From Steromphala cineraria (Eukaryota; Mollusca; Gastropoda; Trochida; Trochidae), in the NCBI GenBank assembly GCA_916613615.1, contig OU744731.1:13956726-14020725 (forward strand): a stretch of 64,000 nucleotides of DNA, in the 5' to 3' direction. Below the pieces are notes generated by a model. The model worked only from the letters and a program-made list of their open reading frames with translations. It made no database searches and had not been told where the DNA came from. The stretch's first letter is position 1, and every line of letters starts with the position of its first letter. This document shows positions 1 through 59,063 of the stretch, one piece after another. The translations under genes were made by a program, and so were the position numbers.

Positions 1-1800
1 CAGTGTGCAGTACTTACCATAATATATCAATTAGATATATCTGATAATACCATCAAGTCCCTCTCTCTCCAGTCCCTCTTCAGGATGTGGATGTGAGTGT
101 TAGTGTGCAGTACTTACCATAATATATCATTTAGATACATCTGATAATACCATCAAGTATGTCCCTCCCCAGTCCCTCTTCAGGATGTGGATGTGATTGT
201 CAGTATGCAGTACTTACCATGATATATCATTTAGATATATCTGATAATACCATCAAGTATCTCTCTCACCAGTCCCTCTTCAGGGTGTGGATGTGAGTGT
301 CAGTGTGCAGTACTTACCATAATATATCATTTAGATATATCTGATAATACCATCAAGTATCTCTCTCCCCAGTCCCTCTTCAGGGTGTGGATGTGAGTGT
401 CAGTGTGCAGTACTTACCATTATATATCATTTAGATATATCTGATAATACCATCAAGTATCTCTCTCCCCAGTACCTCTTCAGGGTGTGGATGTGAGTGT
501 CAGTATGCAGTACTTACCATAATATATCAATTAGATATATCTGATAATACCATCAAGTATCTCTCTCCCCAGTCCCTCTTCAGGATGTGGATGTGAGTGT
601 CAATATGCAGTACTTACCATAATATATCAATTAGATATATCTGATAATACCATCAACTATCTCTCTCCCCAGTCCCTCTTCAGGGTGTGGATGTGAGTGT
701 CAGTGTGCAGTACTTACCATAATATATCATTTAGATATATCTGATAATACCATCAAGTATCTCCCTCCCCAGTCCCTCTTTAGGATGTGGATGTGAGTGT
801 CAGTGTGCAGTACTTACCATAATATATCATTTAGATATATCTGATAATACCATCAAGTATCTCTCTCCCCAGTCCCTCTTCAGGGTGTGGATGTGAGTGT
901 CAGTGTGCAGTACTTACCATAATATATCATTTAGATATATCTGATAATACCATCAAGTATCTCTCTCCCCAGTCCCTCTTCAGGGTGTGGATGTGAGTGT
1001 CAGTGTGCAGTACTTACCATTATATATCATTTAGATATATCTGATAATACCATCAAGTATCTCTCTCCCCAGTCCCTCTTCAGGGTGTGGATGTGAGTGT
1101 CAGTGTGCAGTACTTACCATTATATATCATTTAGATATATCTGATAATACCATCAAGTATCTCTCTCCCCAGTCCCTCTTCAGGGTGTGGATGTGAGTGT
1201 CAGTATGCAGTACTTACCATAATATATCAACTAGATATATCTGATAATACCATCAAGTATCTCTCTCCCCAGTCCCTCTTCAGGGTGTGGATGTGAGTGT
1301 CAGTATGCAGTACTTACCATAATATATCAATTAGATATATCTGATAATACCATCAACTATCTCTCTCCCCAGTACCTCTTCAGGGTGTGGATGTGAGTGT
1401 CAGTGTGCAGTACTTACCATAATATATCATTTAGATATATCTGATAATACCATCAAGTATCTCCCTCCCCAGTCCCTCTTCAGGATGTGGATGTGAGTGT
1501 CAGTGTGCAGTACTTACCATAATATATCAATTAGATACATCTGATAATACCATCAAGTCCCTCTCTCTCCAGTCCCTCTTCAGGATGTGGATGTGAGTGT
1601 TAGTGTGCAGTACTTACCATAATATATCATTTAGATACATCTGATAATACCATCAAGTATCTCCCTCCCAAGTCCCTCTTCAAGATGTGGATGTGAGTGT
1701 CAGTATGCAGTACTTACCATAATATATCAATTAGATATATCTGATAATACCATCAAGTATCTCCCTCCCCAGTCCCTCTTCAGGATGTGGATGTGAGTGT

Positions 1801-3900
1801 CAGTGTGCAGTACTTACCATAATATAACAATTAGATACATCTGATAATACCATCAAGTATCTCCCTCCCCATTCCCTCTTAAGGATGTGGATGTGAGTGT
1901 TAGTATGCAGTACTTACCATAATATATCATTTAGATACATCTGATAATACCATCAAGTATCTCCCTCCCCAGTCCCTCTTCAGGATGTGGATTTGAGTGT
2001 CAGTATGCAGTACTTACCATAATATATCATTTAGATATATCTGATAATACCATCAAGTATCTCCCTCCCCAGTCCCTCTTCAGGGTGTGGATGTGAGTGT
2101 TTGTGTGCAGTACTTACCATAATATATTATTTACATATATCTGATAATACCATCAAGTATCTCTCTCCCCAGTCCCTCTTCAGGATGTGGATGTGAGTGT
2201 CAGTATGCAGTACTTACCATAATATATCATTTAGATATATCTGATAATACCATCAAGTATCTCCCTCCCCAGTCCCTCCTTAGGATGTGGATGTGAGTGT
2301 CAGTATGCAGTACTTACCATAATATATCAATTAGATATATCTGATAATACCATCAAGTATCTCTCTCCCCAGTCCCTCTTCAGGGTGTGGATGTGAGTGT
2401 CAGTGTGTAGTACTTACCATAATATATCATTTAGATATATCTGATAATACCATCAAGTATCTCCCTCCCCAGTCCCTCTTCAGGGTGTGGATGTGAGTGT
2501 CAGTATGCAGTACTTACCATAATATATCATTTAGATATATCTGATAATACCATCAAGTATCTCTCTCCCCAGTCCCTCTTCAGGATGTGGATATGAGTGT
2601 CAGTATGCAGTACTTACCATAATATATCATTTAGATATATCTGATAATACCATCAAGTATCTCCCTCCCCAGTCCCTCCTTAGGATGTGGATGTGAGTGT
2701 CAGTATGCAGTACTTACCATAATATATCAATTAGATATATCTGATAATACCATCAAGTATCTCTCTCCCCAGTCCCTCTTCAGGGTGTGGATGTGAGTGT
2801 CAGTGTGTAGTACTTACCATAATATATCATTTAGATATATCTGATAATACCATCAAGTATCTCCCTCCCCAGTCCCTCTTCAGGATGTGGATGTGAGTGT
2901 CAATGTGCAGTACTTACCATAATATATCAATTAGATATATCTGATAATACCATCAAGTATCTCCCTCCCCAGTCCCTCTTCAGGATGTGGATGTGAGTGT
3001 CAGTGTGCAGTACTTACCATAATATAACAATTAGATACATCTGATAATACCATCAAGTATCTCCCTCCCCAGTCCCTCTTCAGGGTGTGGATGTGAGTGT
3101 CAGTGTGTAGTACTTACCATAATATATCATTTAGATATATCTGATAATACCATCAAGTATCTCCCTCCCCAGTCCCTCTTCAGGATGTGGATGTGAGTGT
3201 CAATGTGCAGTACTTACCATAATATATCAATTAGATATATCTGATAATACCATCAAGTATCTCCCTCCCCAGTCCCTCTTCAGGATGTGGATGTGAGTGT
3301 CAGTGTGCAGTACTTACCATAATATAACAATTAGATACATCTGATAATACCATCAAGTATCTCCCTCCCCAGTCCCTCTTAAGAATGTGGATGTGAGTGT
3401 CAGTATGCAGTACTTACCATAATATATCATTTAGATACATCTGATAATACCATCAAGTATCTCCCTCCCCAGTCCCTCTTCAGGATGTGGATGTGAGTGT
3501 CAGTATGCAGTACTTACCATAATATATCATTTAGATATATCTGATAATACCATCAAGTATCTCTCTCCCCAGTCCCTCTTCAGGGTGTGGATGTGAGTGT
3601 TTGTGTGCAGTACTTACCATAATATATCATTTAGATATATCTGATAATACCATCAAGTATCTCCCTCCCCAGTCCCTCTTCAGTATGTGGATGTGAGTGT
3701 CAGTATGCAGTACTTACCATAATATATCATTTAGATATATCTGATAATACCATCAAGTATCTCCCTCCCCAGTCCCTCCTTAGGATGTGGATGTGAGTGT
3801 CAGTATGCAGTACTTACCATAATATATCAATTAGATACATCTGATAATACCATCAAGTATCTCTCTCCCCAGTCCCTCATCAGGGTGTGGATGTGAGTGT
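1801..3900 (+). repeat. Higher-order repeats of 300, 400 and 1500 bp in the distal array
   Basis: Marker variants recur at fixed multiples of the unit. The variant AATATAACAA occurs at 1821, 3021 and 3321. TTGTGTGCAG occurs at 2101 and 3601, and TAGGATGTGG at 2281, 2681 and 3781. TAGTACTTACC after CAGTGTG occurs at 2401, 2801 and 3101. These give local duplications of three, four and fifteen units, so blocks of several units were copied together after the units had diverged. Confidence 0.75.
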
Positions 3901-5100
3901 TAGTGTGCAGTACTTACCATAATATATCATTTAGATATATCTGATAATACCATCAAGTATCTCTCTCCCCAGTCCCTCTTCAGGGTGTAGATGTGAGTGT
4001 CAGTGAGCAGTACTTACCATAATATATCATTTAGATATATCTGATAATACCATCAAGTATCTCCCTCCCCAGTCCCTCTTCAGGATGTGGATGTGAGTGT
4101 CAGTGTGCAGTACTTACCATAATATATCATTTAGATACATCTGATAATACCATCAAGTCTCTCCCTCCCCAGTCCCTCTTCAGGATGTGGATGTGAGTGT
4201 CAGTGTGCAGTACTTACCATAATATATCATTTAGATATATCTGATAATACCATCAAGTATCTCCCTCCCTAGTCCCTCTTCAGGATGTGGATGTGAGTGT
4301 CAGTGTGCAGTACTTACCATAATATATCATTTAGATACATCTGATAATACCATCAAGTATCTCCCTCCCCAGTCCCTCTTCAGGATGTGGATGTGAGTGT
4401 CAGTATGCAGTACTTACCATAATATATCATTTAGAGATATCTGATAATACCATCAAGTATCTCCCTCCCCAGTCCCTCTTCAGGATGTGGATGTGAGTGT
4501 TAGTGTGCAGTACTTACCATAATATATCATGTAGATACATCTGATAATACCATCAAGTATCTCCCTCCCCAGTCCCTCTTCAGGGTGTGGATGTGAGTGT
4601 CAATGTGCAGTACTTACCATAATATATCAATTAGATACATCTGATAATACTATCAAGTATCTCCCTCCCAAGTCCCTCTTCAGGATGTGGATGTGAGTGT
4701 CAGTGTGCAGTACTTACCATAATATATCATTTAGATACATCTGATAATACCATCAAGTATCTCCTTCCCCAGTCCCTCTTCAGGATGTGGATGTGAGTGT
4801 CAGTGTGTAGTACTTACCATAATATATCAATTAGATACATCTGATAATACCATCAAGTATCTCCCTCTCCAGTCCCTCTTCAGGATGTGGATGTGAGTGT
4901 CAGTGTGCAGTACTTACCATAATATATCATTTAGATACATCTGATAATACCATCAAGTATCTCTCTCCCCAGTCCCTCTTCAGGGTGTGGATGTGAGTGT
5001 CAATGTGCAGTACTTACCATAATATATCAATTAGATACATCTGATAATACCATCAAGTATCTCCCTCCCCAGTCCCTCTTCAGGATGTGGATGTGAGTGT

Positions 5101-8100: not shown

Positions 8101-8800
8101 CAGTGTGCAGTACTTACCATAATATATCATTTAGATATATCTGATAATACCATCAAGTATCTCCCTCCCCAGTCCCTCTTCAGGATGTGGATGTGAGTGT
8201 CAGTGTGCAGTACTTACCATAATATATCATTTAGATACATCTGATAATACCATCAAGTATCTCCCTCCCCAGTCCCTCTTCAGGATGTGGATGTGAGTGT
8301 CAGTATGCAGTACTTACCATAATATATCATTTAGATATATCTGATAATACCATCAAGTATCTCCCTCCCCAGTCCCTCTTCAGGATGTGGATGTGAGTGT
8401 TAGTGTGCAGTACTTACCATAATATATCATGTAGATACATCTGATAATACCATCAAGTATCTCCCTCCCCAGTCCCTCTTCAGGGTGTGGATGTGAGTGT
8501 CAATGTGCAGTACTTACCATAATATATCAATTAGATACATCTGATAATACCATCAAGTATCTCCCTCCCTAGTCCCTCTTCAGGGTGTGGATGTGAGTGT
8601 TAGTGTGCAGTACTTACCATAATATATCATTTAGATACATCTGATAATACCATCAAGTATCTCCTTCCCCAGTCCCTCTTCAGGATGTGGATGTGAGTGT
8701 CAGTGTGTAGTACTTACCATAATATATCAATTAGATACATCTGATAATACCATCAAGTATCTCCCTCCCCAGTCCCTCTTCAGGATGTGGATGTGAGTGT
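5101..8800 (+). repeat. ~2.1-kb higher-order repeat pair
   Basis: Units from 5101 onward reappear from 7201 onward in the same order. The TATGCAG/CAATTAGATACAT/CCCTAGTCCC variant at 5701 recurs at 7801 (offset 2100). The GTAGATACAT variant at 4531 recurs at 6631 (offset 2100) and again at 8431 (offset 1800), so about three units were gained or lost inside one copy. A further copy of parts of this block appears near 14000-15300, for example GTAGATACAT at 14831. Confidence 0.7.
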
Positions 8801-9600
8801 CAGTGTGCAGTACTTACCATAATATATCATTTAGATACATCTGATAATACCATCAAGTATCTCTCTCCCCAGTCCCTCTTCAGGGTGTGGATGTGAGTGT
8901 CAATGTGCAGTACTTACCATAATATATCAATTAGATACATCTGATAATACCATCAAGTATCTCCCTCCCTAGTCCCTCTTCAGGGTGTGGATGTGAGTGT
9001 CAGTGTGCATTACTTACCATAATATATCATTTAGATATATCTGATAATACCATCAAGTATCTCCCTCCCCAGTCCCTCTTCAGGATGTGGATGTGAGTGT
9101 CAATGTGCAGTACTTACCATAATATATCATCTAGATATATCTGATAATACCATCAAGTTTCTCCCTCCCCAGTCCCTCTTCAGGATGTGGATGTGAGTGT
9201 CAGTGTGCAGTACTTACCATAATATATCAATTAGATATATCTGATAATACCATCAAGTATCTCCCTCCCCAGTCCCTCTTCAGGATGTGGATGTGAGTGT
9301 CAGCATGCAGTACTTACCATACTATATCATTTAGATACATCTGATAATACCATCAAGTATCTCCCTCCCCAGTCCCTCTTAAGAATGTGGATGTGAGTGT
9401 CAGTGTGCAGTACTTACCATAATATATCATTTAGATACATCTGATAATACCATCAAGTATCTCCCTCCCCAGTCCCTCTTCAGGATGTGGATGTGAGTGT
9501 CAGTGTGCAGTACTTACCATAATATATCATTTAGATATATCTGATAATACCATCAAGTCCCTCTCTCCCCAGTCCCTCTTCAGGATGTGGATGTGAGTGT

Positions 9601-12600
9601 CAGTGTGCAGTACTTACCATAATATAACAATTAGATACATCTGATAATACCATCAAGTATCTCCCTCCCCAGTCCCTCTTAAGAATGTGGATGTGAATGT
9701 CAGTATGCAGTACTTACCATAATATATCATTTAGATACATCTGATAATACCATCAAGTATCTCCCTCCCCAGTCCCTCTTCAGGATGTGGATGTGAGTGT
9801 CAGTATGCAGTACTTACCATAATATATCATTTAGATATATCTGATAATACCATCAAGTATCTCCCTCCCCAGTCCCTCTTCAGGGTGTGGATGTGAGTGT
9901 TAGTGTGCAGTACTTACCATAATATATCATTTAGATATATCTGATAATACCATCAAGTATCTCTCTCCCCAGTCCCTCTTCAGGGTGTGGATGTGAGTGT
10001 CAGTATGCAGTACTTACCATAATATATCATTTAGATACATCTGATAATACCATCAAGTATCTCCCTCCCCAGTCCCTCTTCAGGGTATGGATGTGAGTGT
10101 CAGTGTGCAGTACTTACCATAATATATCAATTAGATATATCTGATAATACCATCAAGTATCTCTCTCCCCCGTCCCTCTTCAGGGTGTGGATGTGAGTGT
10201 CAATGTGCAGTACTTACCATAATATATCAATTAGATACATCTGATAATACCATCAAGTCTCTCCCTCCCCAGTCCCTCTTCAGGGTGTGGATGTGAGTGT
10301 TAGTGTGCAGTACTTACCATAATATATAATTTAGATATATCTGATAATACCATCAAGTATCTCTCTCTCCAGTCCCTCTTCAGGATGTGGATGTGAGTGT
10401 CAGTGTGCAGTACTTACCATAATATATCATTTAGATACATCTGATAATACCATCAAGTATCTCCCTCCCCAGTCCCTCTTCAGGATGTGGATGTGAGTGT
10501 CAGTGTGCAGTACTTACCATAATATATCATTTAGATACATCTAATAATACCATCAAGTATCTCCCTCCCCAGTCCCTCTTCAGGATGTGGATGTGAGTGT
10601 CAGTGTGCAGTACTTACCATAATATATCAATTAGATATATCTGATAATACCATCAAGTATCTCCCTCCCAAATCCCTCTTCAGGATGTGGATGTGAGTGT
10701 CAGTATGCAGTACTTACCATAATATATCATTTAGATACATCTGATAATACCATCAAGTATCTCCCTCCCCAGTCCCTCTTCAGGGTGTGGATGTGAGTGT
10801 CAATGTGCAGTACTTACCATAATATATCAATTAGATATATCTAATAATACCATCAAGTATCTCCCTCCCCAGTCCATCTTCAGGATGTGGATGTGAGTGT
10901 CAGTGTGCAGTACTTACCATAATATATCATTTAGATACATCTGATAATACCATCAAGTATCTCCCTCCCAAATCCCTCTTCAGGATGTGGATGTGAGTGT
11001 CAGTATGCAGTACTTACCATAATATATCATTTAGATATATCTGATAATACCATCAAGTATCTCTCTCCCCAGTCCCTCTTCAGGGTGTGGATGTGAGTGT
11101 TTTTGTGCAGTACTTACCATAATATATCATTTAGATATATCTGATAATACCATTAAGTATTTCTCTCCCCAGTCCCTCTTCAGGGTGTGGATGTGAGTGT
11201 CAGTGTGCATTACTTACCATAATATATCATTTAGATATATCTGATAATACCATCAAGTATCTCCCTCCCCAGTCCCTCTTCAGGATGTGGATGTGAGTGT
11301 CAATGTGCAGTACTTACCATAATATATCATTTAGATATATCTGATAATACCATCAAGTATCTCTCTCCCCAGTCCCTCTTCAGGATGTGGATGTGAGTGT
11401 CAGTGTGCAGTACTTACCATAATATAACAATTAGATACATCTGATAATACCATCAAGTATCTCCCTCCCCAGTCCCTCTTAAGAATGTGGATGTGAATGT
11501 CAGTATGCAGTACTTACCATAATATATCATTTAGATACATCTGATAATACCATCAAGTATCTCCCTCCCCAGTCCCTCTTCAGGATGTGGATGTGAGTGT
11601 CAGTATGCAGTACTTACCATAATATATCATTTAGATATATCTGATAATACCATCAAGTATCTCCCTCCCCAGTCCCTCTTCAGGGTGTGGATGTGAGTGT
11701 TTGTGTGCAGTACTTACCATAATATATCATTTAGATATATCTGATAATACCATCAAGTATCTCTCTCCCCAGTCCCTCTTCAGGGTGTGGATGTGAGTGT
11801 CAGTATGCAGTACTTACCATAATATATCATTTAGATACATCTGATAATACCATCAAGTATCTCCCTCCCCAGTCCCTCTTCAGGGTATGGATGTGAGTGT
11901 CAGTGTGCAGTACTTACCATAATATATCATTTAGATATATCTGATAATACCATCAAGTATCTCCCTCCCCAGTCCCTCTTCAGGGTGTGGATGTGAGTGT
12001 CAATGTGCAGTACTTACCATAATATATCAATTAGATACATCTGATAATACCATCAAGTCTCTCCCTCCCCAGTCCCTCTTCAGGGTGTGGATGTGAGTGT
12101 TAGTGTGCAGTACTTACCATAATATATAATTTAGATATATCTGATAATACCATCAAGTATCTCTCTCTCCAGTCCCTCTTCAGGATGTGGATGTGAGTGT
12201 CAGTGTGCAGTACTTACCATAATATATCATTTAGATACATCTGATAATACCATCAAGTATCTCCCTCCCCAGTCCCTCTTCAGGATGTGGATGTGAGTGT
12301 CAGTGTGCAGTACTTACCATAATATATCATTTAGATACATCTGATAATACCATCAAGTATCTCCCTCCCCAGTCCCTCTTCAGGATGTGGATGTGAGTGT
12401 CAGTGTGCAGTACTTACCATAATATATCAATTAGATATATCTGATAATACCATCAAGTATCTCCCTCCCAAATCCCTCTTCAGGATGTGGATGTGAGTGT
12501 CAGTATGCAGTACTTACCATAATATATCATTTAGATACATCTGATAATACCATCAAGTATCTCCCTCCCCAGTCCCTCTTCAGGGTGTGGATGTGAGTGT

Positions 12601-13200: not shown

Positions 13201-16000
13201 CAGTGTGCAGTACTTACCATAATATATCAATTAGATATATCTGATAATACCATCAAGTATCTCCCTCCCCAGTCCCTCTTCAGGATGTGGATGTGAGTGT
13301 CAGCATGCAGTACTTACCATACTATATCATTTAGATACATCTGATAATACCATCAAGTATCTCCCTCCCCAGTCCCTCTTAAGAATGTGGATGTGAGTGT
13401 CAGTGTGCAGTACTTACCATAATATATCATTTAGATACATCTGATAATACCATCAAGTATCTCCCTCCCCAGTCCCTCTTCAGGATGTGGATGTGAGTGT
13501 CAGTGTGCAGTACTTACCATAATATATCATTTAGATATATCTGATAATACCATCAAGTCCCTCTCTCCCCAGTCCCTCTTCAGGATGTGGATGTGAGTGT
13601 CAGTGTGCAGTACTTACCATAATATAACAATTAGATACATCTGATAATACCATCAAGTATCTCCCTCCCCAGTCCCTCTTAAGAATGTGGATGTGAGTGT
13701 CAGTATGCAGTACTTACCATAATATATCATTTAGATACATCTGATAATACCATCAAGTATCTCCCTCCCCAGTCCCTCTTCAGGATGTGGATGTGAGTGT
13801 CAGTATGCAGTACTTACCATAATATATCATTTAGATATATCTGATAATACCATCAAGTGTCTCCCTCCCCAGTCCCTCTTCAGGGTGTGGATGTGAGTGT
13901 TTGTGTGCAGTACTTACCATAATATATCATTTAGATATATCTGATAATACCATCAAGTATCTCCCTCCCCAGTCCCTCTTCAGGATGTGGATGTGAGTGT
14001 CAGTATGCAGTACTTACCATAATATATCAATTAGATACATCTGATAATACCATCAAGTATCTCCCTCCCTAGTCCCTCTTCAGGGTGTGGATGTGAGTGT
14101 CAGTGTGCAGTACTTACCATAATATATCATTTAGATACATCTGATAATACCATCAAGTATCTCTCTCCCCAGTCCCTCTTCAGGGTGTGGATGTGAGTGT
14201 CAATGTGCAGTACTTACCATAATATATCAATTAGATACATCTGATAATACCATCAAGTATCTCCCTCCCTAGTCCCTCTTCAGGGTGTGGATGTGAGTGT
14301 CAGTGTGCAGTACTTACCATAATATATCATTTAGATATATCTGATAATACCATCAAGTATCTCCCTCCCCAGTCCCTCTTCAAGATGTGGATGTGAGTGT
14401 CAGTGTGCAGTACTTACCATAATATATCATTTAGATATATCTGATAATACCATCAAGTATCTCCCTCCCCAGTCCCTCTTCAGGGTGTGGATGTGAGTGT
14501 CAATGTGCAGTACTTACCATAATATATCAATTAGATATATCTAATAATACCATCAAGTATCTCCCTCCCCAGTCCCTCTTCAGGATGTGGATGTGAGTGT
14601 CAGTGTGCAGTACTTACCATAATATATCATTTAGATACATCTGATAATACCATCAAGTATCTCCCTCCCCAGTCCCTCTTCAGGATGTGGATGTGAGTGT
14701 CAGTATGCAGTACTTACCATAATATATCATTTAGATATATCTGATAATACCATCAAGTATCTCCCTCCCCAGTCCCTCTTCAGGATGTGGATGTGAGTGT
14801 TAGTGTGCAGTACTTACCATAATATATCATGTAGATACATCTGATAATACCATCAAGTATCTCCCTCCCCAGTCCCTCTTCAGGGTGTGGATGTGAGTGT
14901 CAATGTGCAGTACTTACCATAATATATCAATTAGATACATCTGATAATACCATCAAGTATCTCCCTCCCTAGTCCCTCTTCAGGGTGTGGATGTGAGTGT
15001 CAGTGTGCAGTACTTACCATAATATATCATTTAGATACATCTGATAATACCATCAAGTATCTCTCTCCCCAGTCCCTCTTCAGGATGTGGATGTGAGTGT
15101 CAGTGTGTAGTACTTACCATAATATATCAATTAGATACATCTGATAATACCATCAAGTATCTCCCTCCCCAGTCCCTCTTCAGGATGTGGATGTGAGTGT
15201 CAGTGTGCAGTACTTACCATAATATATCATTTAGATACATCTGATAATACCATCAAGTATCTCTCTCCCCAGTCCCTCTTCAGGGTGTGGATGTGAGTGT
15301 CAATGTGCAGTACTTACCATAATATATCAATTAGATACATCTGATAATACCATCAAGTATCTCCTTCCCTAGTCCCTCTTCAGGGTGTGGATGTGAGTGT
15401 CAGTGTGCATTACTTACCATAATATATCATTTAGATATATCTGATAATACCATCAAGTATCTCCCTCCCCAGTCCCTCTTCAGGATGTGGATGTGAGTGT
15501 CAATGTGCAGTACTTACCATAATATATCATTTAGATATATCTGATAATACCATCAAGTATCTCCCTCCCCAGTCCCTCTTCAGGATGTGGATGTGAGTGT
15601 CAGTGTGCAGTACTTACCATAATATATCAATTAGATATATCTGATAATACCATCAAGTATCTCCCTCCCCAGTCCCTCTTCAGGATGTGGATGTGAGTGT
15701 CAGCATGCAGTACTTACCATACTATATCATTTAGATACATCTGATAATACCATCAAGTATCTCCCTCCCCAGTCCCTCTTAAGAATGTGGATGTGAGTGT
15801 CAGTGTGCAGTACTTACCATAATATATCATTTAGATACATCTGATAATACCATCAAGTATCTCCCTCCCCAGTCCCTCTTCAGGATGTGGATGTGAGTGT
15901 CAGTGTGCAGTACTTACCATAATATATCATTTAGATATATCTGATAATACCATCAAGTCCCTCTCTCCCCAGTCCCTCTTCAGGATGTGGATGTGAGTGT

Positions 16001-19000
16001 CAGTGTGCAGTACTTACCATAATAGAACAATTAGATACATCTGATAATACCATCAAGTATCTCCCTCCCCAGTCCCTCTTAAGAATGTGGATGTGAATGT
16101 CAGTATGCAGTACTTACCATAATATATCATTTAGATACATCTGATAATACCATCAAGTATCTCCCTCCCCAGTCCCTCTTCAGGATGTGGATGTGAGTGT
16201 CAGTATGCAGTACTTACCATAATATATCATTTAGATATATCTGATAATACCATCAAGTATCTCCCTCCCCAGTCCCTCTTCAGGGTGTGGATGTGAGTGT
16301 TTGTGTGCAGTACTTACCATAATATATCATTTAGATATATCTGATAATACCATCAAGTATCTCCCTCCCCAGTCCCTCTTCAGGGTGTGGATGTGAGTGT
16401 CAGTATGCAGTACTTACCATAATATATCATTTAGATACATCTGATAATACCATCAAGTATCTCCCTCCCCAGTCCCTCTTCAGGGTATGGATGTGAGTGT
16501 CAGTGTGCAGTACTTACCATAATATATCAATTAGATATATCTGATAATACCATCAAGTATCTCTCTCCCCAGTCCCTCTTCAGGGTGTGGATGTGAGTGT
16601 CAATGTGCAGTACTTACCATAATATATCAATTAGATACATCTGATAATACCATCAAGTCTCTCCCTCCCCAGTCCCTCTTCAGGGTGTGGATGTGAGTGT
16701 TAGTGTGCAGTACTTACCATAATATATAATTTAGATATATCTGATAATACCATCAAGTATCTCTCTCTCCAGTCCCTCTTCAGGATGTGGATGTGAGTGT
16801 CAGTGTGCAGTACTTACCATAATATATCATTTAGATACATCTGATAATACCATCAAGTATCTCCCTCCCCAGTCCCTCTTCAGGATGTGGATGTGAGTGT
16901 CAGTGTGCAGTACTTACCATAATATATCATTTAGATACATCTAATAATACCATCAAGTATCTCCCTCCCCAGTCCCTCTTCAGGATGTGGATGTGAGTGT
17001 CAATGTGCAGTACTTACCATAATATATCAATTAGATATATCTGATAATACCATCAAGTATCTCCCTCCCAAATCCCTCTTCAGGATGTGGATGTGAGTGT
17101 CAGTATGCAGTACTTACCATAATATATCATTTAGATACATCTGATAATACCATCAAGTATCTCCCTCCCCAGTCCCTCTTCAGGGTGTGGATGTGAGTGT
17201 CAATGTGCAGTACTTACCATAATATATCAATTAGATATATCTAATAATACCATCAAGTATCTCCCTCCCCAGTCCATCTTCAGGATGTGGATGTGAGTGT
17301 CAGTGTGCAGTACTTACCATAATATATCAATTAGATATATCTGATAATACCATCAAGTATCTCCCTCCCAAATCCCTCTTCAGGATGTGGATGTGAGTGT
17401 CAGTATGCAGTACTTACCATAATATATCATTTAGATATATCTGATAATACCATCAAGTATCTCTCTCCCCAGTCCCTCTTCAGGGTGTGGATGTGAGTGT
17501 TTTTGTGCAGTACTTACCATAATATATCATTTAGATATATCTGATAATACCATTAAGTATTTCTCTCCCCAGTCCCTCTTCAGGGTGTGGATGTGAGTGT
17601 CGGTGTGCATTACTTACCATAATATATCATTTAGATATATCTGATAATACCATCAAGTATCTCCCTCCCCAGTCCCTCTTCAGGATGTGGATGTGAGTGT
17701 CAATGTGCAGTACTTACCATAATATATCATTTAGATATATCTGATAATACCATCAAGTATCTCTCTCCCCAGTCCCTCTTCAGGATGTGGATGTGAGTGT
17801 CAGTGTGCAGTACTTACCATAATATAACAATTAGATACATCTGATAATACCATCAAGTATCTCCCTCCCCAGTCCCTCTTAAGAATGTGGATGTGAATGT
17901 CAGTATGCAGTACTTACCATAATATATCATTTAGATACATCTGATAATACCATCAAGTATCTCCCTCCCCAGTCCCTCTTCAGGATGTGGATGTGAGTGT
18001 CAGTATGCAGTACTTACCATAATATATCATTTAGATATATCTGATAATACCATCAAGTATCTCCCTCCCCAGTCCCTCTTCAGGGTGTGGATGTGAGTGT
18101 TTGTGTGCAGTACTTACCATAATATATCATTTAGATATATCTGATAATACCATCAAGTATCTCTCTCCCCAGTCCCTCTTCAGGGTGTGGATGTGAGTGT
18201 CAGTATGCAGTACTTACCATAATATATCATTTAGATACATCTGATAATACCATCAAGTATCTCCCTCCCCAGTCCCTCTTCAGGGTATGGATGTGAGTGT
18301 CAGTGTGCAGTACTTACCATAATATATCAATTAGATATATCTGATAATACCATCAAGTATCTCTCTCCCCAGTCCCTCTTCAGGGTGTGGATGTGAGTGT
18401 CAATGTGCAGTACTTACCATAATATATCAATTAGATACATCTGATAATACCATCAAGTCTCTCCCTCCCCAGTCCCTCTTCAGGGTGTGGATGTGAGTGT
18501 TAGTGTGCAGTACTTACCATAATATATAATTTAGATATATCTGATAATACCATCAAGTATCTCTCTCTCCAGTCCCTCTTCAGGATGTGGATGTGAGTGT
18601 CAGTGTGCAGTACTTACCATAATATATCATTTAGATACATCTGATAATACCATCAAGTATCTCCCTCCCCAGTCCCTCTTCAGGATGTGGATGTGAGTGT
18701 CAGTGTGCAGTACTTACCATAATATATCATTTAGATACATCTAATAATACCATCAAGTATCTCCCTCCCCAGTCCCTCTTCAGGATGTGGATGTAATTGT
18801 CAGTGTGCAGTACTTACCATAATATATCAATTAGATATATCTGATAATACCATCAAGTATCTCCCTCCCAAATCCCTCTTCAGGATGTGGATGTGAGTGT
18901 CAGTATGCAGTACTTACCATAATATATCATTTAGATACATCTGATAATACCATCAAGTATCTCCCTCCCCAGTCCCTCTTCAGGGTGTGGATGTGAGTGT

Positions 19001-27700: not shown

Positions 27701-30700
27701 TGTCAGTGTGTAGTACTTACCATAAAATATCATTTAGATATATCTGATAATACCATCAAGTATCTCCCTCCCCAGTCCCTCTTCAGGATGTGGATGTGAG
27801 TGTCAGTATGCAGTACTTACCATTATATATCATTTAGATATATCTGATAATACCATCAAGTATCTCCCTCCCCAGTCCCTCTTCAGGATGTGGATGTGAG
27901 TGTCAGTGTGTAGTACTTACCATAAAATATCATTTAGATATATCTGATAATACCATCAAGTATCTCCCTCCCCAGTCCCTCTTCAGGATGTGGATGTGAG
28001 TGTCAGTATGCAGTACTTACCATTATATATCATTTAGATATATCTGATAATACCATCAAGTATCTCCCTCCCCAGTCCCTCTTCAGGATGTGGATGTGAG
28101 TGTCAGTGTGTAGTACTTACCATAATATATCATTTAGATACATCTGATAATACCATCAAGTATCTCCCTCCCCAGTCCCTCTTCAGGATGTGGATGTGAG
28201 TGTCAGTGTGTAGTACTTACCATAATATATCAATTAGATACATCTGATAATACCATCAAGTATCTCCCTCCCCAGTCCCTCTTCAGGATGTGGATGTGAG
28301 TGTCAGTATGCAGTACTTACCATAATATATCATTTAGATACATCTGATAATACCATCAAGTATCTCCCTCCCTAGTCCCTCTTCAGGATGTGGATGTGAG
28401 TGTCAGTGTGCAGTACTTACCATAATATATCATTTAGATACATCTGATAATACCATCAAGTATCTCCCTCCCCAGTCCCTCTTCAGGATGTGGATGTGAG
28501 TGTCAGTGTGTAGTACTTACCATAAAATATCATTTAGATATATCTGATAATACCATCAAGTATCTCCCTCCCCAGTCCCTCTTCAGGAGTTGGATGTGAG
28601 TGTCAGTGTGTAGTACTTACCATAATATATCATTTAGATACATCTGATAATACCATCAAGTATCGCCCTCCCCAGTCCCTCTTCAGGAGTTGGATGTGAG
28701 TGTCAGTGTGCAGTACTTACCATAATATATCATTTAGATATATCTGATAATACCATCAAGTATCTCCCTCCCCAGTCCCTCTTCAGGATGTGGATGTGAG
28801 TGTCAGTGTGCAGTACTTACCATAATATATCATTTAGATACATCTGATAATACCATCAAGTATCTCCCTCCCCAGTCCCTCTTCAGGATGTGGATGTGAG
28901 TGTCAGTGTCTAGTACTTACCATAATATATCATTTAGATATATCTGATAATACCATCAAGTATCTCCCTCCCCAGTCCCTCTTCAGGATGTGGATGTGAG
29001 TGTCAGTGTGCAGTACTTACCATAATATATCATTTAGATACATCTGATAATACCATCAAGTATCTCCCTCCCCAGTCCCTCTTCAGGATGTGGATGTGAG
29101 TGTCAGTGTCTAGTACTTACCATAATATATCATTTAGATATATCTGATAATACCATCAAGTATCTCCCTCCCCAGTCCCTCTTCAGGATGTGGATGTGAG
29201 TGTCAGTGTGCAGTACTTACCATGATATATCATTTAGATACATCTGATAATACCATCAAGTATCTCTCTCCCCAGTCCCTCTTCATGGAGTGGATGTGAG
29301 TGTCAGTGTGCAGTACTTACCATAATATATAATTTAGATATATCTGATAATACCATCAAGTATCTCCCTCCCCAGTCCCTCTTCAGGATGTGGATGTGAG
29401 TGTCAGTATGCAGTACTTACCATAATATATCATTTAGATACATCTGATAATACCATCAAGTATATCCCTCCCTAGTCCCTCTTCAGGATGTAGATGTGGG
29501 TGTCAGTGTGCAGTACTTACCATAATATATCATTTAGATATATCTGATAATACCATCAAGTATCTCTCTCCCCAGTCCCTCTTCAGGATGTGGATGTGAG
29601 TGTCAGTGTGCCGTACTTACCATAATATATCATTTAGATACATCTGATAATACCATCAAGTATATCCCTCCCTAGTCCCTCTTCAGGATGTGGATGTGAG
29701 TGTCAGTGTGCAGTACTTACCATAATATATCATTTAGATACATCTGATAATACCATCAAGTATCGCCCTCCCCAGTCCCTCTTCAGGATGTGGATGTGAG
29801 TGTCAGTATGCAGTACTTACCATAATATATCATTTAGATACATCTGATAATACCATCAAGTATCTCCCTCCCCAGTCCCTCTTCAGGATGTGGATGTGAG
29901 TGTCAGTGTGCAGTACTTACCATAATATATCATTTAGATACATCTGATAATACCATCAAGTATCTCCCTCCCCAGTCCCTCTTCAGGATGTGGATGTGAG
30001 TGTCAGTGTGTAGTACTTACCATAAAATATCATTTAGATATATCTGATAATACCATCAAGTATCTCCCTCCCCAGTCCCTCTTCAGGATGTGGATGTGAG
30101 TGTCAGTATGCAGTACTTACCATTATATATCATTTAGATATATCTGATAATACCATCAAGTATCTCCCTCCCCAGTCCCTCTTCAGGATGTGGATGTGAG
30201 TGTCAGTGTGTAGTACTTACCATAAAATATCATTTAGATATATCTGATAATACCATCAAGTATCTCCCTCCCCAGTCCCTCTTCAGGATGTGGATGTGAG
30301 TGTCAGTATGCAGTACTTACCATTATATATCATTTAGATATATCTGATAATACCATCAAGTATCTCCCTCCCCAGTCCCTCTTCAGGATGTGGATGTGAG
30401 TGTCAGTGTGTAGTACTTACCATAATATATCATTTAGATACATCTGATAATACCATCAAGTATCTCCCTCCCCAGTCCCTCTTCAGGATGTGGATGTGAG
30501 TGTCAGTGTGTAGTACTTACCATAATATATCAATTAGATACATCTGATAATACCATCAAGTATCTCCCTCCCCAGTCCCTCTTCAGGATGTGGATGTGAG
30601 TGTCAGTGTGCAGTACTTACCATAATATATCATTTAGATACATCTGATAATACCATCAAGTATCTCCCTCCCCAGTCCCTCTTCAGGATGTGGATGTGAG

Positions 30701-47995: not shown

Positions 47996-50900
47996 CAGTG
48001 TGCAGTACTTACCATAATATATCATTTAGATATATCTGATAATACCATCAAGTATCTCCCTCCCATGTCCCTCTTCAGGATGTGGAAGTGAGTGTTAGAG
48101 TGCAGTACTTACCATAATATATCAATTAGATACATCTGGTAACACCAACAAGTATCTCCCTCCCCAGTCCCTCTTCAGGATGTGGATGTGAGTGTCAGTG
48201 TGCAGTACTTACCATAATATATCAATTAAATATATCTGATAATACCATCAAGTATCTCTCTCCCCAGTCCCTCTTCAGGGTGTAGATGTGAGTGTCAGTG
48301 TGCAGTACTTACCATAATATATCATTTAGATACATCTGATAATACCATCAAGTATCTCCCTCCCCAGTCCCTCTTCAGGATGTGGATGTGAGTGTCAGTG
48401 TGCAGTACTTACCATAATATATCAATTAGATACATCTGATAATACCATCAAGTCTCTATGTCCCCAGTCCCTCTTCAGGATGTGGATGTGAGTGTCAGTG
48501 TGCAGTACTTACCATAATATATCATTTAGATACATCTGATAATACCATCAAGTCTCTATGTCCCCGGTCCCTCTTCAGGATGTGGATGTGAGTGTCAGTG
48601 TGCAGTACTTACCATAATATATCAATTAGATACATCTGATAATACCATCAAGTATCTCCCTCCCCAGTCCCTCTTCAGGATGTGGATGTGAATGTCAGTG
48701 TGCAGTACTTACCATAATATATCATTTAGATATATCTGATAATACCATCAAGTATCTCCCTCCCCAGTCCCTCTTCAGGATGTGGATGTGAGTGTCAGTG
48801 TGCAGTACTTACCATAATATATCATTTAGATACATCTGATAATACCATCAAGTATCTCCCTCCCCAGTCCCTCTTCAGGATGTGGATGTGAGTGTCAGTG
48901 TGCAGTACTTACCATAATATATCATTTAGATATATCTGATAATACCATCAAGTCTCTCCCTCCCCAGTCCCTCTTCAGGATGTGGATGTGAGTGTTAGTG
49001 TACAGTACTTACCATAATATATAATTTAGATACATCTGATAATACCATCAAGTAACTCCCTCCCCAGTCCCTCTTCAGGATGTGGATGTGAGTGTCAGTG
49101 TGCAGTACTTACCATAATATATCATTTAGATATATCTGATAATACCATCAAGTATCTCCCTCCCCAGTCCCTCTTCAGGATGTGGATGTGAGTGTCAGTG
49201 TGCAGTACTTACCATAATATATCATTTAGATATATCTGATAATACCATCAAGTATCTCCCTCCCCAGTCCCTCTTCAGGATGTGGATGTGAGTGTCAGTG
49301 TGCAGTACTTACCATAATATATCAATTAGATACATCCGGTAACACCAACAAGTCTCTCTATCCCCAGTCCCTCTTCAGGATGTAGATGTGAGTGTCAGTG
49401 TGCAGTACTTACCATAATATATAATTTAGATACATCTGGTAACACCAACAAGTATCTCCCTCCCCAGTCCCTCTTCAGGATGTGGATGTGAGTGTCAGTG
49501 TGCAGACCTTACCATAATATATCATTTAGATACATCTGATAATACCATCAAGTATCTCCCTCCCCAGTCCCTCTTCAGGATGTGGATGTGAGTGTCAGTG
49601 TGCAGTACTTACCATAATATATCAATAAGATATATCTGATAACACCATCAAGTATCTCCCTCCCCAGTCCCTCTTCAGGGTGTGGATGTGAGTGTCAGTG
49701 TGCATTACTTACCATAATATATCAATTAGATATATGTGATAATACCATCAAGTATCTCCCTCCCCAGTCCCTCTTCAGGATGTGGATGTGAGTGTCAGTG
49801 TGCAGTACTTACCATAATATATCAATTAGATATATCTGATAATACCATCAAGTATCTCCCTCCCCAGTCCCTCTTCAGGATGTGGATGTGAGTGTCAGTG
49901 TGCAGTACTTACCATAATATATCATTTAGATACATCTGACAATACCATCAAGTCTCTATGTCCCCAGTCCCTCTTCAGGGTGTAGATGTGAGTGTCAGTG
50001 TGCAGTACTGACCATAATATATCAATTAGATACATCTGATAATACCATCAAGTCTCTCTCTCCCCAGTCCCTCTTCAGGGTGTGGATGTGAGTGTCAGTG
50101 CGCATTACTTATAACATAGATATATATCAAGTCTCTCTCTCCCCAGTCCCTCTTCATGACGTGGATGTGAGTGTCAGTGTGCAGTACTTATAACATAAAT
50201 ATCTCTGATAATACCAACAAGTATCTCCCTCCCCAGTCCCTCTTCAGGATGTGGATGTGAGTGTCAGTGTGCAGTACTTACCATAATATATAATTTAGAT
50301 ACATCTGATAATACCATCAAGTATCTCCCTCCCCAGTCCCTCTTCAGGATGTGGATGTGAGTGTCAGTGTGCAGTACTTACCATAATATATCAATTAGAT
50401 ACATCTGATAATACCATCAAGTATCTCTCTCCCCAGTCCCTCTTCAGGATGTGGATGTGAGTGTCAGTGTGCAGTACTTACCATAATATATCAATTAGAT
50501 ACATCTGATAATACCATCAAGTATCTCTCTCCCCAGTCCCTCTTCAGGATGTGGATGTGAGTGTCAGTGTGCAGTACTTACCATAATATATAATTTAGAT
50601 ATATCTGATAATACCATCAAGTATCTCCCTCCCAAATCCCTCTTCAGGATGTGGATGTGAGTGTCAGTGTGCATTACTTACCATATTATATCATTTAGAT
50701 ACATCTGATAATACCATCAAGTATCTCCCTCCCCAGTCCCTCTTCAGGATGTGGATGTGAGTGTCAGTGTGCAGTACTTACCATAATATATCATTTAGAT
50801 ATATCTGATAATACCATCAAGTATCTCCCTCCCCAGTCCCTCTTCAGGATGTGGATGTGAGTGTCAGTGTGCAGTACTTACCATAATATATCATTTAGAT

Positions 50901-53900: not shown

Positions 53901-56900
53901 CATCTGATAATACCATCAAGTCTCTATGTCCCCGGTCCCTCTTCAGGATGTGGATGTGAGTGTCAGTGTGCAGTACTTACCATAATATATCAATTAGATA
54001 CATCTGATAATACCATCAAGTATCTCCCTCCCCAGTCCCTCTTCAGGATGTGGATGTGAGTGTCAGTGTGCAGTACTTACCATAATATATCATTTAGATA
54101 TATCTGATAATACCATCAAGTCTCTCCCTCCCCAGTCCCTCTTCAGGATGTGGATGTGAGTGTTAGTGTACAGTACTTACCATAATATATAATTTAGATA
54201 CATCTGATAATACCATCAAGTATCTCCCTCCCCAGTCCCTCTTCAGGATGTGGATGTGAGTGTCAGTGTGCAGTACTTACCATAATATATCATTTAGATA
54301 TATCTGATAATACCATCAAGTATCTCCCTCCCCAGTCCCTCTTCAGGATGTGGATGTGAGTGTCAGTGTGCAGTACTTACCATAATATATCATTTAGATA
54401 CATCTGATAATACCATCAAGTATCTCCCTCCCCAGTCCCTCTTCAGGGTGTGGATGTGAGTGTCAGTGTGCAGTACTTACCATAATATATCATTTAGATA
54501 CATCTGATAATACCATCAAGTATCTCCCTCCCCAGTCCCTCTTCAGGATGTGGATGTGAGTGTCAGTGTGCAGTACTTACCATAATATATAATTTAGATA
54601 CATCTGATAATACCATCAAGTATCTCCCTCCCCAGTCCCTCTTCAGGATGTGGATGTGAGTGTCAGTGTGCAGTACTTACCATAATATATCATTTAGATA
54701 CATCTGATAATACCATCAAGTATCTCCCTCCCCAGTCCCTCTTCAGGATGTGGATGTGAGTGTCAGTGTGCAGTACTTACCATAATATATCATTTAGATA
54801 TATCTGATAATACCATCAAGTATCTCCCTCCCCAGTCCCTCTTCAGGATGTGGATGTGAGTGTCAGTGTGCAGTACTTACCATAATATATCATTAAGATA
54901 CATCTGATAATACCATCAAGTATCTCCCTCCCCAGTCCCTCTTCAGGATGTGGATGTGAGTGTCAGTGTGCAGTACTTACCATAATATATCATTTAGATA
55001 CATCTGATAATACCATCAAGTATCTCCCTCCCCAGTCCCTCTTCAGGATGTGGATGTGAGTGTCAGTGTGCAGTACTTACCATAATATATCATTTAGATA
55101 CATCTGATAATACCATCAAGTATCTCCCTCCCCAGTCCCTCTTCAGGATGTGGATGTGAGTGTCAGTGTGCAGTACTTACCATAATATATCATTTAGATA
55201 CATCTGATAATACCATCAAGTATCTCCCTCCCCAGTCCCTCTTCAGGATGTGGATGTGAGTGTCAGTGTGCAGTACTTACCATAATATATCATTTAGATA
55301 TATCTGATAATACCATCAAGTATCTCCCTCCCCAGTCCCTCTTCAGGATGTGGATGTGAGTGTCAGTGTGCAGTACTTACCATAATATATCATTTAGATA
55401 CATCTGATAATACCATCAAGTATCTCCCTCCCCAGTCCCTCTTCAGGATGTGGATGTGAGTGTCAGTGTGCAGTACTTACCATAATATATCATTTAGATA
55501 TATCTCATAATACCATCAAGTATCTCCCTCCCCAGTCCCTCTTCAGGATGTGGATGTGAGTGTCAGTGTGCAGTACTTACCATAATATATCATTTAGATA
55601 TATCTGATAATACCATCAAGTATCTCCCTCCCCAGTCCCTCTTCAGGATGTGGATGTGAGTGTCAGTGTGCAGTACTTACCATAATATATCAATTAGATA
55701 CATCCGGTAACACCAACAAGTCTCTCTATCCCCAGTCCCTCTTCAGGATGTAGATGTGAGTGTCAGTGTGCAGTACTTACCATAATATATAATTTAGATA
55801 CATCTGGTAACACCAACAAGTATCTCCCTCCCCAGTCCCTCTTCAGGATGTGGATGTGAGTGTCAGTGTGCAGTACTTACCATAATATATCATTTAGATA
55901 CATCTGATAATACCATCAAGTATCTCCCTCCCAGTCCCTCTTCAGGATGTAGATGTGAGTGTCAGTGTGCAGTACTTACCATAATATATCAATAAGATAT
56001 ATCTGATAACACCATCAAGTATCTCCCTCCCCAGTCCCTCTTCAGGATGTAGATGTGAGTGTTTGTGTGCAGTACTTACCATAATATATCAATTAGATAT
56101 ATCTGATAATACCATCAAGTATCTCCCTCCCCAGTCCCTCTTCAGGATGTGGATGTGAGTGTCAGTGTGCAGTACTTACCATAATATATCAATAAGATAT
56201 ATCTGATAACACCATCAAGTATCTCCCTCCCCAGTCCCTCTTCAGGGTGTGGATGTGAGTGTCAGTGTGCATTACTTACCATAATATATCAATTAGATAT
56301 ATCTGATAATACCATCAAGTTTCTCCCTCCCCAGTCCCTCTTCAGGATGTGGATGTGAGTGTCAGTGTGCAGTACTTACCATAATATATCAATTAGATAT
56401 ATCTGATAATACCATCAAGTATCTCCCTCCCCAGTCCCTCTTCAGGATGTGGATGTGAGTGTCAGTGTGCAGTACTTACCATAATATATCATTTAGATAC
56501 ATCTGACAATACCATCAAGTCTCTATGTCCCCAGTCCCTCTTCAGGGTGTAGATGTGAGTGTCAGTGTGCAGTACTGACCATAATATATCAATTAGATAC
56601 ATCTGATAATACCATCAAGTCTCTCTCTCCCCAGTCCCTCTTCAGGGTGTGGATGTGAGTGTCAGTGCGCATTACTTATAACATAGATATATATCAAGTC
56701 TCTCTCTCCCCAGTCCCTCTTCATGACGTGGATGTGAGTGTCAGTGTGCAGTACTTATAACATAAATATCTCTGATAATACCAACAAGTATCTCCCTCCC
56801 CAGTCCCTCTTCAGGATGTGGATGTGAGTGTCAGTGTGCAGTACTTACCATAATATATAATTTAGATACATCTGATAACACCATCAAGTATCTCCCTCCC

Positions 56901-58131
56901 CAGTCCCTCTTCAGGATGTGGATGTGAGTGTCAGTGTGCAGTACTTACCATAATATATCATTTAGATACATCTGATAATACCATCAAGTATCTCCCTCCC
57001 CAGTCCCTCTTCAGGATGTGGATGTGAGTGTCAGTGTGCAGTACTTACCATAATATATAATTTAGATACATCTGATAACACCATCAAGTATCTCCCTCCC
57101 CAGTCCCTCTTCAGGATGTGGATGTGAGTGTCAGTGTGCAGTACTTACCATAATATATAATTTAGATACATCTGATAACACCATCAAGTATCTCCCTCCC
57201 CAGTCCCTCTTCAGGATGTGGATGTGAGTGTCAGTGTGCAGTACTTACCATAATATATCAATTAGATACATCTGATAATACCATCAAGTATCTCCCTCCC
57301 CAGTCCCTCTTCAGGATGTGGATGTGAGTGTCAGTGTGCAGTACTTACCATAATATATCAATTAGATACATCTGATAATACCATCAAGTATCTCTCTCCC
57401 CAGTCCCTCTTCAGGATGTGGATGTGAGTGTCAGTGTGCAGTACTTACCATAATATATCAATTAGATACATCTGATAATACCATCAAGTATCTCTCTCCC
57501 CAGTCCCTCTTCAGGATGTGGATGTGAGTGTCAGTGTGCAGTACTTACCATAATATATCATTTAGATATATCTGATAATACCATCAAGTATCTCCCTCCC
57601 CAGTCCCTCTTCAGGATGTGGATGTGAGTGTCAGTGTGCAGTACTTACCATAATATATCAATTAGATATATCTGATAACACCATCAAGTATCTCCCTCCC
57701 CAGTCCCTCTTCAGGGTGTGGATGTGAGTGTCAGTGTGCATTACTTACCATAATATATCAATTAGATATATCTGATAATACCATCAAGTTTCTCCCTCCC
57801 CAGTCCCTCTTCAGGATGTGGATGTGAGTGTCAGTGTGCAGTACTTACCATAATATATCAATTAGATATATCTGATAATACCATCAAGTATCTCCCTCCC
57901 CAGTTCCTCTTCAGGATGTGGATGTGAGTGTCAGTGTGCAGTACTTACCATAATATATCATTTAGATACATCTGACAATACCATCAAGTCTCTATGTCCC
58001 CAGTCCCTCTTCAGGGTGTAGATGTGAGTGTCAGTGTGCAGTACTTACCATAATATATCAATTAGATACATCTGATAATACCATCAAGTCTCTCTCTCCC
58101 CAGTCCCTCTTCAGGGTGTGGATGTGAGTGT

Positions 58132-59063
58132 CAGTGCGCATTACTTATAACATAGATATATATCAAGTCTCTCTCTCCCCAGTCCCTCTTCATGACGTGG
58201 ATGTGAGTGTCAGTGTGCAGTACTTATAACATAAATATCTCTGATAATACCATCAAGTCTCTCTCCCCAGTCCCTCTTCATGGAGTGGATGTGAGTGTCA
58301 GTGTGCAGTACTTACCATAATATATCAATTAGATATATCTGATAACACCATCAAGTATCTCCCTCCCCAGTCCCTCTTCAGGGTGTAGATGTGAGTGTCA
58401 GTGTGCAGTACTTACCATAATATATCAATTAGATACATCTGATAATACCATCAAGTATCTCCCTCCCCAGTCCCTCTTCAGGGTGTAGATGTGAGTGTCA
58501 GTGTGCAGTACTTACCATAATATATCAATTAGATACATCTGATAATACCATCAAGTATCTCCCTCCCCAGTCCCTCTTCAGGATGTGGATGTGAGTGTCA
58601 GTGTGCAGTACTTACCATAATATATAATTTAGATATATCTGGTAACACCAACAAGTCTCTCCCTCCCATGTCCCTCTTCAGGATGTGGATGTGAGTGTCA
58701 GTGTGCAGTACTTACCATAATATATCAATTAGATATATCTGATAATACCATCAAGTCTCTCTATCCCCAGTCCCTCTTCAGGGTGTGGATGTGAGTGTCA
58801 GTGCGCATTACTTATAACATAGATATATATCAAGTCTCTCTCTCCCCAGTCCCTCTTCATGACGTGGATGTGAGTGTCAGTGTGCAGTACTTATAACATA
58901 AATATATCTGATAATACCATCAAGTCTCTCTCCCCAGTCCCTCTTCAGGATGTGAATGTGAGTGTCAGTGTGCAGTACTTATAACATAAATATCTCTGAT
59001 AATACCATCAAGTCTCTCTCCCCAGTCCCTCTTCATGGAGTGGATGTGAGTGTCAGTGTGCAG
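58132..59063 (+). repeat. Short units (79/88/100 bp) leading into the real exon
   Basis: Unit starts lie at 58132, 58211, 58299, 58399 and so on, then 58799, 58878, 58966 and 59054. The spacings are 79, 88 and 100 bp at the left, and 79, 88 and 88 bp at the right. The final 88-bp unit carries TACTTATAACATAAATATCT, CTGATAATACC and TCTCTCTCCCCAG and passes without interruption into the exon. The real junction is thus the terminal unit, and the 88-bp form is the best candidate for the ancestral unit; the 100-bp core form has an extra ~12 bp of AT-rich sequence. Confidence 0.8.
58996..59025 (+). promoter_or_regulatory. Genuine 3' splice site of the VIT exon
   Basis: CTGAT at 58996-59000 fits the yUnAy branch-point pattern, with the A 26 bases before the intron end. 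The pyrimidine tract TCTCTCTCCCC and CAG end at 59025. The next base opens the coding exon in phase 1. The same arrangement, with the A 28 bases upstream, is present in nearly every satellite unit. Confidence 0.75.

What the first reader, a model, noticed from the sequence alone, without database searches (positions are those of the whole stretch)
1..59063. A giant intron built from ~590 copies of its own 3' splice junction
The satellite unit is the end of this intron plus the first 38 bases of the VIT exon, and the array merges directly into the true junction at 59025/59026. Seen: unit structure and continuity. Known: exon-edge minisatellites have been reported in amphioxus (recalled, not checked), normally far smaller. 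Inferred: a boundary duplication expanded into a satellite of at least 59 kb inside an expressed-looking gene, turning a splice site into satellite DNA.
Basis: partly seen in the sequence, partly recalled or inferred. Interest (0 to 1): 0.92.

Follow-up and report, generated by a model that had tools for sequence, protein, structure and literature searches.

The report
Satellite built from a splice junction
In what looks like a sea-snail gene, the short DNA stretch where an intron ends and the next exon begins has been copied head-to-tail nearly 600 times, filling at least 59,000 bases with decoy splice sites that the cell would have to ignore.

Summary
Window 1-59063 is one unbroken array; 11-59063 tiles into 592 units, 568 of them 100 bp. 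The consensus unit is 62 bp of intron 3' end plus the first 38 bp of the exon at 59026. The array runs into the authentic junction, and an exact 88/88 copy of the junction unit lies at 58221-58308. The exon starts a VIT domain in a VWA5A-like gene.

The six best protein matches are all Haliotis, so the source is most likely a vetigastropod mollusc, not amphioxus. Amphioxus is where such boundary minisatellites ("mirages") are published, with 6 and 3 copies in globin BflGb6 (PMC3087553, passages).

Units also carry a donor-like GTGAGT, so each resembles a 20-nt exon plus an 80-nt proto-intron. By a recalled matrix, the consensus decoy sites beat six of seven real sites. All 555 decoy acceptors read (of 591) stop within 23 residues. 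Variation fits neutrality. A second, two-copy boundary duplication lies in the same gene.

Best reading: a giant, neutral mirage grown by block duplication. Not tested: upstream exon, splicing, copies elsewhere (own-genome search did not complete).

The parts
1..59063 (+). Tandem array; 11-59063 = 592 contiguous units (568 of 592 exactly 100 bp), consensus = 62 bp intron 3' end + 38 bp exon start; continues past the left window edge
58976..59063 (+). Authentic junction unit (88 bp): last 50 bp of intron ending CCCCAG, first 38 bp of the exon
59026..59231 (+). Exon that starts the VIT domain (tc|CCT..., begins inside a Val codon); its first 38 bp are the exonic part of the array unit
58221..58308 (+). 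Exact 88/88 copy of the authentic junction unit inside the array, followed by array sequence instead of exon; the match extends a further 20 bp to the left
50006..50274 (+). Edge-type cassette (97+82+90 bp units), resembling the junction-proximal unit series; block 49806-50374 recurs at 56373-56941 with 1 difference
56573..56841 (+). Edge-type cassette, second copy
58042..58308 (+). Edge-type cassette, third copy, ending in the exact junction copy
58709..59063 (+). Edge-type units next to the real exon (97, 82, 88, 88 bp)
9211..10910 (+). 17-unit block duplicated at 15611-17310 (5 differences): longest of 36 runs of 5 or more units with at most 1 difference per unit
59493..59721 (+). VWA5A-like exon (VIT, continued)
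60134..60303 (+). VWA5A-like exon
60963..61059 (+). VWA5A-like exon
62556..62666 (+). VWA5A-like exon (start of the VWA domain)
62709..62914 (+). Second, two-copy acceptor-boundary duplication (62709-62805 and 62811-62914) around the acceptor of exon 62886
62886..63012 (+). VWA5A-like exon (VWA domain)
63669..63813 (+). VWA5A-like exon (VWA domain)

Best explanation
[quoted passage not shown] The real junction itself is sometimes copied. The array is neutral, lies inside one intron of a gene whose N-terminal exon is upstream of the window, and is removed whole by splicing to the last acceptor. Shown: anatomy, gene-to-satellite direction, block duplication, an exact copy of the real junction in the array, variation compatible with neutrality. 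Inferred: the exchange mechanism, intron status, expression, how splicing ignores the decoys.
For: 592 contiguous units in register with the junction. The exonic 38 bp encode a segment conserved in the Haliotis relative. Exact 88/88 copy of the junction unit at 58221-58308 and exact exon 38-mers at 29276, 31476, 58271. 36 runs of 5 or more near-identical units, the longest 17, against 0 in nine and 1 in one of ten order shuffles. Edge units diverge: the last 12 units average 88.7 matches per 100 consensus positions against 95.2-98.5 in the other 29 blocks of 20. Synonymous:nonsynonymous distinct variants 14:44 observed, 17.7:51.0 expected from the intron part. Seven exons with AG/GT borders give 361 codons with no stop. 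A second boundary duplication in the same gene hints at a recurrent process.
Against: The left end and the upstream exon are not in the window. No RNA data. All 555 decoy acceptors that could be read (of 591) would give a stop within 23 residues, and 527 of 572 scored acceptors, the true one among them, reach the true one's score, so a working gene needs an unexplained way of choosing the last site; a damaged or silent gene is possible. The GTGAGT columns vary less than the mean column (0.019 against 0.054), though not in a rank test (p = 0.34), so weak constraint on the donor motif is not excluded. Whether the unit lies elsewhere in the genome was not tested (genome search not answered).
Confidence: 0.72

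Rival explanations
1. The gene copy is 5'-truncated or silent: the array is not in a spliced intron but ends a broken VWA5A-like paralogue.
For: No upstream exon recognised in the window and no in-frame ATG between the exon and the nearest upstream stop. Haliotis rufescens has two VWA5A-like entries with the same longest-contig length (P0121 and P0126, both 59995430), so paralogues are plausible. Use of any of the 555 decoy acceptors read would truncate the product.
Against: 361 codons without a stop over seven exons with AG/GT borders; VIT 108.8 bits, VWA_3 43.4 bits; the exon starts in mid-codon exactly where the seven aligned relatives have V.
Confidence: 0.2
2. Each unit works as a real exon/intron pair: the pre-mRNA of the array is spliced through its 80-nt proto-introns, giving chains of 20-nt exons or many isoforms.
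For: Consensus donor GAT|GTGAGT and acceptor each beat 6 of 7 real sites of the gene by a recalled matrix. 551 of 591 units keep both AG and GT. GTGAGT columns have low mean heterozygosity (0.019 against 0.054). A potato gene gained an intron from the same anatomy (PMC4974935, abstract).
Against: AG columns vary about as the mean column (0.059 and 0.056 against 0.054); rank tests find no special conservation of the 13 element columns (p = 1.0) or of GTGAGT (p = 0.34); syn:nonsyn variants as under neutrality. The chain of 551 micro-exons has 18 stops, the first at codon 837; the low number mostly reflects a stop-free consensus. The gene's six real introns in the window are 219-1496 nt.
Confidence: 0.08
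3. A general satellite that happens to abut this exon.
For: Satellite-scale length; other copies in the genome could not be searched.
Against: The unit contains 38 bp of coding sequence of this very gene, conserved in a Haliotis relative, and runs in register into its junction, so at least the unit came from here.
Confidence: 0.03
4. Assembly artefact: a short mirage inflated by mis-joined reads.
For: Only one assembled sequence was seen; long arrays are error-prone.
Against: 270 distinct aligned units among 592, 164 of them seen once; most of the long block duplicates carry differences.
Confidence: 0.05

Closest known systems
Mirages: exon/intron-boundary minisatellites of amphioxus (globins BflGb6 and BflGb9, Adh3; PMC3087553, passages; PGBD5 and TnC, PMC3902484, passage)
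   Same: Tandem units span an intron/exon boundary. BflGb6 units are 3' intron end plus 5' exon part, as here. Many units keep AG/GT signals; concerted evolution inside the array with edge units left out.
   Different: BflGb6 has 6 and 3 copies of 150-160 bp on its two haplotypes; here at least 592 of mostly 100 bp. Source most likely a mollusc, not a cephalochordate. For globin and Adh3 the paper reports no interference with regular splicing; here untested.
Intron gain by tandem duplication across an intron-exon boundary (potato RdRp; PMC4974935, abstract)
   Same: Donor taken from the duplicated exonic segment; branch site, polypyrimidine tract and acceptor inherited from the parent intron: the anatomy of most units here.
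   Different: One duplication and one new, used intron in potato; here hundreds of potential introns with no evidence of use.
Satellite-filled gigantic introns of Drosophila Y genes kl-3 and kl-5 (PMC6508621, abstract; PMC11207136, passages)
   Same: A gene intron made mostly of satellite DNA.
   Different: Those are megabases of simple satellite repeats, and what I read does not say that they come from the host gene's splice site; here the unit is the junction itself and the array is at least 59 kb.
[quoted passage not shown] 1995; only its title seen, in a reference list)
   Same: A tandem repeat that multiplies splice sites.
   Different: Donor sites, described in the title as provided to a transcript; here acceptor units with a donor-like motif, use unknown.

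Membership tests
Mirage (exon/intron-boundary minisatellite) | Tandem units span an authentic exon/intron boundary | tested here: met
   last unit is the junction 59025/59026
Mirage (exon/intron-boundary minisatellite) | Unit length in the published range (10-160 bp) | tested here: met
   100 bp in 568 of 592 units; range from PMC3087553 passages
Mirage (exon/intron-boundary minisatellite) | Concerted evolution inside, divergent units at the array edge | tested here: met
   right edge only, left edge outside the window
Mirage (exon/intron-boundary minisatellite) | Found in cephalochordates | tested here: not met
   Best six of the 120 proteins listed (247 hits) are Haliotis, Branchiostoma belcheri 43%; species not directly known. 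So it is filed as mirage-like anatomy, not as an amphioxus mirage
Mirage (exon/intron-boundary minisatellite) | Regular splicing is not disturbed | not testable with these tools
   no RNA data
Intron gain by tandem duplication | Duplicated exonic segment offers a donor; intronic segment offers branch site, tract and AG | tested here: met
   GTGAGT kept in 562 of 592, AG in 557 of 592, branch-like CTGAT in 555 of 592; motifs only, branch site recalled by consensus
Intron gain by tandem duplication | The new intron is actually spliced | not testable with these tools
   no RNA data; variation gives no clear support
Giant satellite intron | Exons on both sides of the satellite in one transcript | not testable with these tools
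   the array reaches the window's left edge; own-genome search not answered (11 calls)

The most novel reading that the evidence does not exclude
The array is a tandem of about 550 signal-complete proto-introns (20-nt exon + 80-nt intron) that stays in exchange with the real junction. Copies leave the junction (three exact exon-start copies inside the array) and may return to it, so the array could be both a reservoir for new introns and a generator of N-terminal VIT variants (53 distinct open 12-residue versions among the units), in a lineage where boundary duplication recurs.
Probability: 0.12. Interest if true: 0.85.

Novelty: new variant of a known kind. Interest (0 to 1): 0.62.

Why it matters
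It would show that a splice junction can be the birthplace of a satellite, extend boundary minisatellites from amphioxus to molluscs at roughly a hundred times the copy number reported for the globin BflGb6, and offer a natural test of how the spliceosome finds one acceptor behind several hundred near-identical decoys that score as well or better. [quoted passage not shown]

Tried and rejected
Rejected: amphioxus as source. Coding selection on the unit's exon part (14:44 against 17.7:51.0). Strong selection to keep or to lose splice signals: over the 13 element columns (AG, GTGAGT, CTGAT) mean heterozygosity is 0.030 against 0.057 for the rest, but the rank test gives p = 1.0, because a few high-frequency variants raise the mean of the rest (median of all columns 0.020); AG alone is 0.059 and 0.056. 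GTGAGT alone is low in mean (0.019) and p = 0.34. A hairpin-driven expansion: unit z-scores 1.25 and -0.59 on the two strands. Long ORFs in the array: longest stop-free stretch 119 codons, + strand. Micro-exon chain: open-looking because the consensus is stop-free; the within-exon shuffle (mean 131 stops) is not a fair control, because one consensus is repeated. Boundary duplications at the other junctions: tested at 7 acceptors and 7 donors within 1500 bp of sequence right of the array, against 200 shuffles each (acceptor 59026 could only be tested to its right); only acceptor 62886 is clear (64 against a null maximum of 17); donor 62666 scores 19 against 17 because its window runs into the same duplicate.

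Limits of the counts: the unit alignment misplaces a gap in the four units that carry the exact exon 38-mer, so these four are among the 9 'gapped' ('open 548 of 592' is therefore a lower bound) and are wrongly counted among the 558 with TTCAG (554 after taking them off). Donor and acceptor scores use base frequencies recalled for human sites, not a published program; in the 3636 bp of introns right of the array 9 AG and 15 GT also reach the true sites' scores, so the true sites are not strong. The first exon model, typed, had 364 residues; junctions were refined to 361.

Literature: ten answered searches (the last listed no paper) and one argument error. Searches held 64 and 135 papers, of which 20 each were listed. 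Among the listed titles and abstract starts I saw no array made of a splice junction at this scale or in a mollusc. The library lacks most subscription papers; Turri et al. 1995 was not held.
Full report
What is there. The window is one tandem array from base 1 (cut by the edge) to 59063, followed by the exons of a gene. Tandem Repeats Finder gives period 100 over 1-56678 and further rows to 59063. A wrap-around alignment divides 11-59063 into 592 units, 568 of exactly 100 bp, mean identity to consensus 96.8%, with no gap between consecutive units. The consensus unit is 62 bp that end in ...CTCCCTCCCCAG, then 38 bp that are the start of the exon at 59026. The last unit, 58976-59063, is the authentic junction; past base 59063 the exon goes on as GGCTTCC, where the array copy of that unit goes on as TACTTAC.

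The gene. Seven exons with AG/GT borders (59026-59231, 59493-59721, 60134-60303, 60963-61059, 62556-62666, 62886-63012, 63669-63813) give 361 codons without a stop. Pfam finds VIT (108.8 bits) and VWA_3 (43.4 bits) (on the earlier 364-residue join). The closest proteins are VWA5A-like: of 247 hits, 120 are listed, and the first six are all Haliotis (best H. rufescens, 56% identity, E 5.8e-116), followed by Mytilus and Helobdella; Branchiostoma belcheri has 43%. Haliotis is Vetigastropoda. The source is therefore most likely a vetigastropod mollusc, but no near-identical protein was found, so the species is not known; this is inferred from one partial protein. All seven relatives that I aligned (picked from the 120 listed) have a start Met 13-27 residues before P-L, with V just before it; the window's exon begins inside that Val codon (tc|CCT), and no in-frame ATG lies between it and the nearest upstream stop. 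So an N-terminal exon upstream of the array is expected but not seen.

Direction. The 38 bp encode PLHGVDVSVSVQ, which H. rufescens has as PLTSVDVSVSVQ. Conserved coding sequence inside the satellite shows that the gene gave rise to the satellite. The array consensus (PLQDVDVSVSVQ) differs at 3 of 38 bases. Exact 38-mers lie at 29276, 31476 and 58271 besides 59026, and 58221-58308 matches the junction unit at 88 of 88 bases: the real junction, or an identical unit, has been copied within the array.

How it grew. Units at neighbouring and middle distances are about equally alike (4.97 differences per 100 at lag 1, 5.25 at lags 120-239) and less so far apart (6.61 at lags 240-591). Multi-unit blocks recur: 36 runs of at least five units with at most one difference each, the longest 17, against 0 in nine and 1 in one of ten order shuffles. 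A series of short edge-type units (97, 82, 88 or 90 bp) occurs four times, at 50006, 56573, 58042 and 58709 next to the exon. The last 12 units are the most divergent from the consensus (88.7 against 95.2-98.5). This fits in-register unequal exchange or slippage with a poorly homogenised edge, as described for the amphioxus globin mirage (PMC3087553, passages); the mechanism itself is inferred.

Splicing. Of 592 units (the authentic one included) 557 keep AG, 562 keep GTGAGT (20 nt into the exon part) and 555 keep CTGAT before the tract. Most units thus hold a 20-nt exon and an 80-nt proto-intron. With base frequencies recalled for human sites, the consensus acceptor (8.82) and donor (7.91) each beat six of the gene's seven real ones, and 527 of 572 scored acceptors, the true one among them, reach the true one's score. 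Against this, the true sites are not strong: 9 AG and 15 GT in 3636 bp of the other introns also reach them. Read in the gene's phase, all 555 decoy acceptors that could be read (of 591) give a stop within 23 residues; none reaches the exon. 554 of 592 units carry a second AG (TTCAG) inside the exon part that the real exon lacks. How a cell would choose the last acceptor is unexplained.

Selection. The exon part varies as much as the intron part (mean heterozygosity 0.051 and 0.055, p = 0.65), and distinct synonymous and nonsynonymous variants are 14 and 44 against 17.7 and 51.0 expected. AG columns are about average (0.059, 0.056); GTGAGT columns are low in mean (0.019) but not in a rank test (p = 0.34), nor are the 13 element columns together (p = 1.0). 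The array behaves as neutral DNA, with weak constraint on the donor motif not excluded. Strong harm from its acceptors would be expected to remove them, and there is no sign of that either.

A second case in the same gene. 62709-62805 and 62811-62914 are two copies of the acceptor region and exon start of exon 62886 (local score 64, maximum of 200 shuffles 17; 88% over 78 bp). Of seven acceptors and seven donors tested only this one shows it clearly. Boundary duplication may thus recur in this lineage.

Known or new. Boundary minisatellites are known from amphioxus (PMC3087553, PMC3902484; passages), and intron gain from a boundary duplication from potato (PMC4974935, abstract). Satellite-filled giant introns are known from Drosophila Y genes (PMC6508621, abstract). 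The combination here, a satellite-scale array made of the junction itself, in a likely mollusc, was not among the papers listed by my ten answered searches, two of which showed only 20 of 64 and of 135 papers. I call it a new variant of a known kind.

Open. The left border, the upstream exon, copies elsewhere in the genome, expression and splicing were not tested: the own-genome search did not complete in eleven tries, and no RNA data are held.

Noticed in passing
62709-62914: Two-copy duplication of another acceptor boundary in the same gene; the upstream copy's acceptor reads TTTTAAG instead of TTTTCAG.
   Followed up: yes
array units, exon positions 7-11: 554 of 592 units carry a second acceptor-like TTCAG inside the exon part, which the authentic exon lacks (TTCATGG).
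   Followed up: partly
array, - strand: The unit's CTTACC reads GGTAAG on the - strand, a good donor-like motif for any antisense transcript.
   Followed up: no
60446-60493 and 60633-60680: 48-nt inverted repeat, 73% complementary, in the intron before exon 60963; possible small transposon remnant.
   Followed up: no
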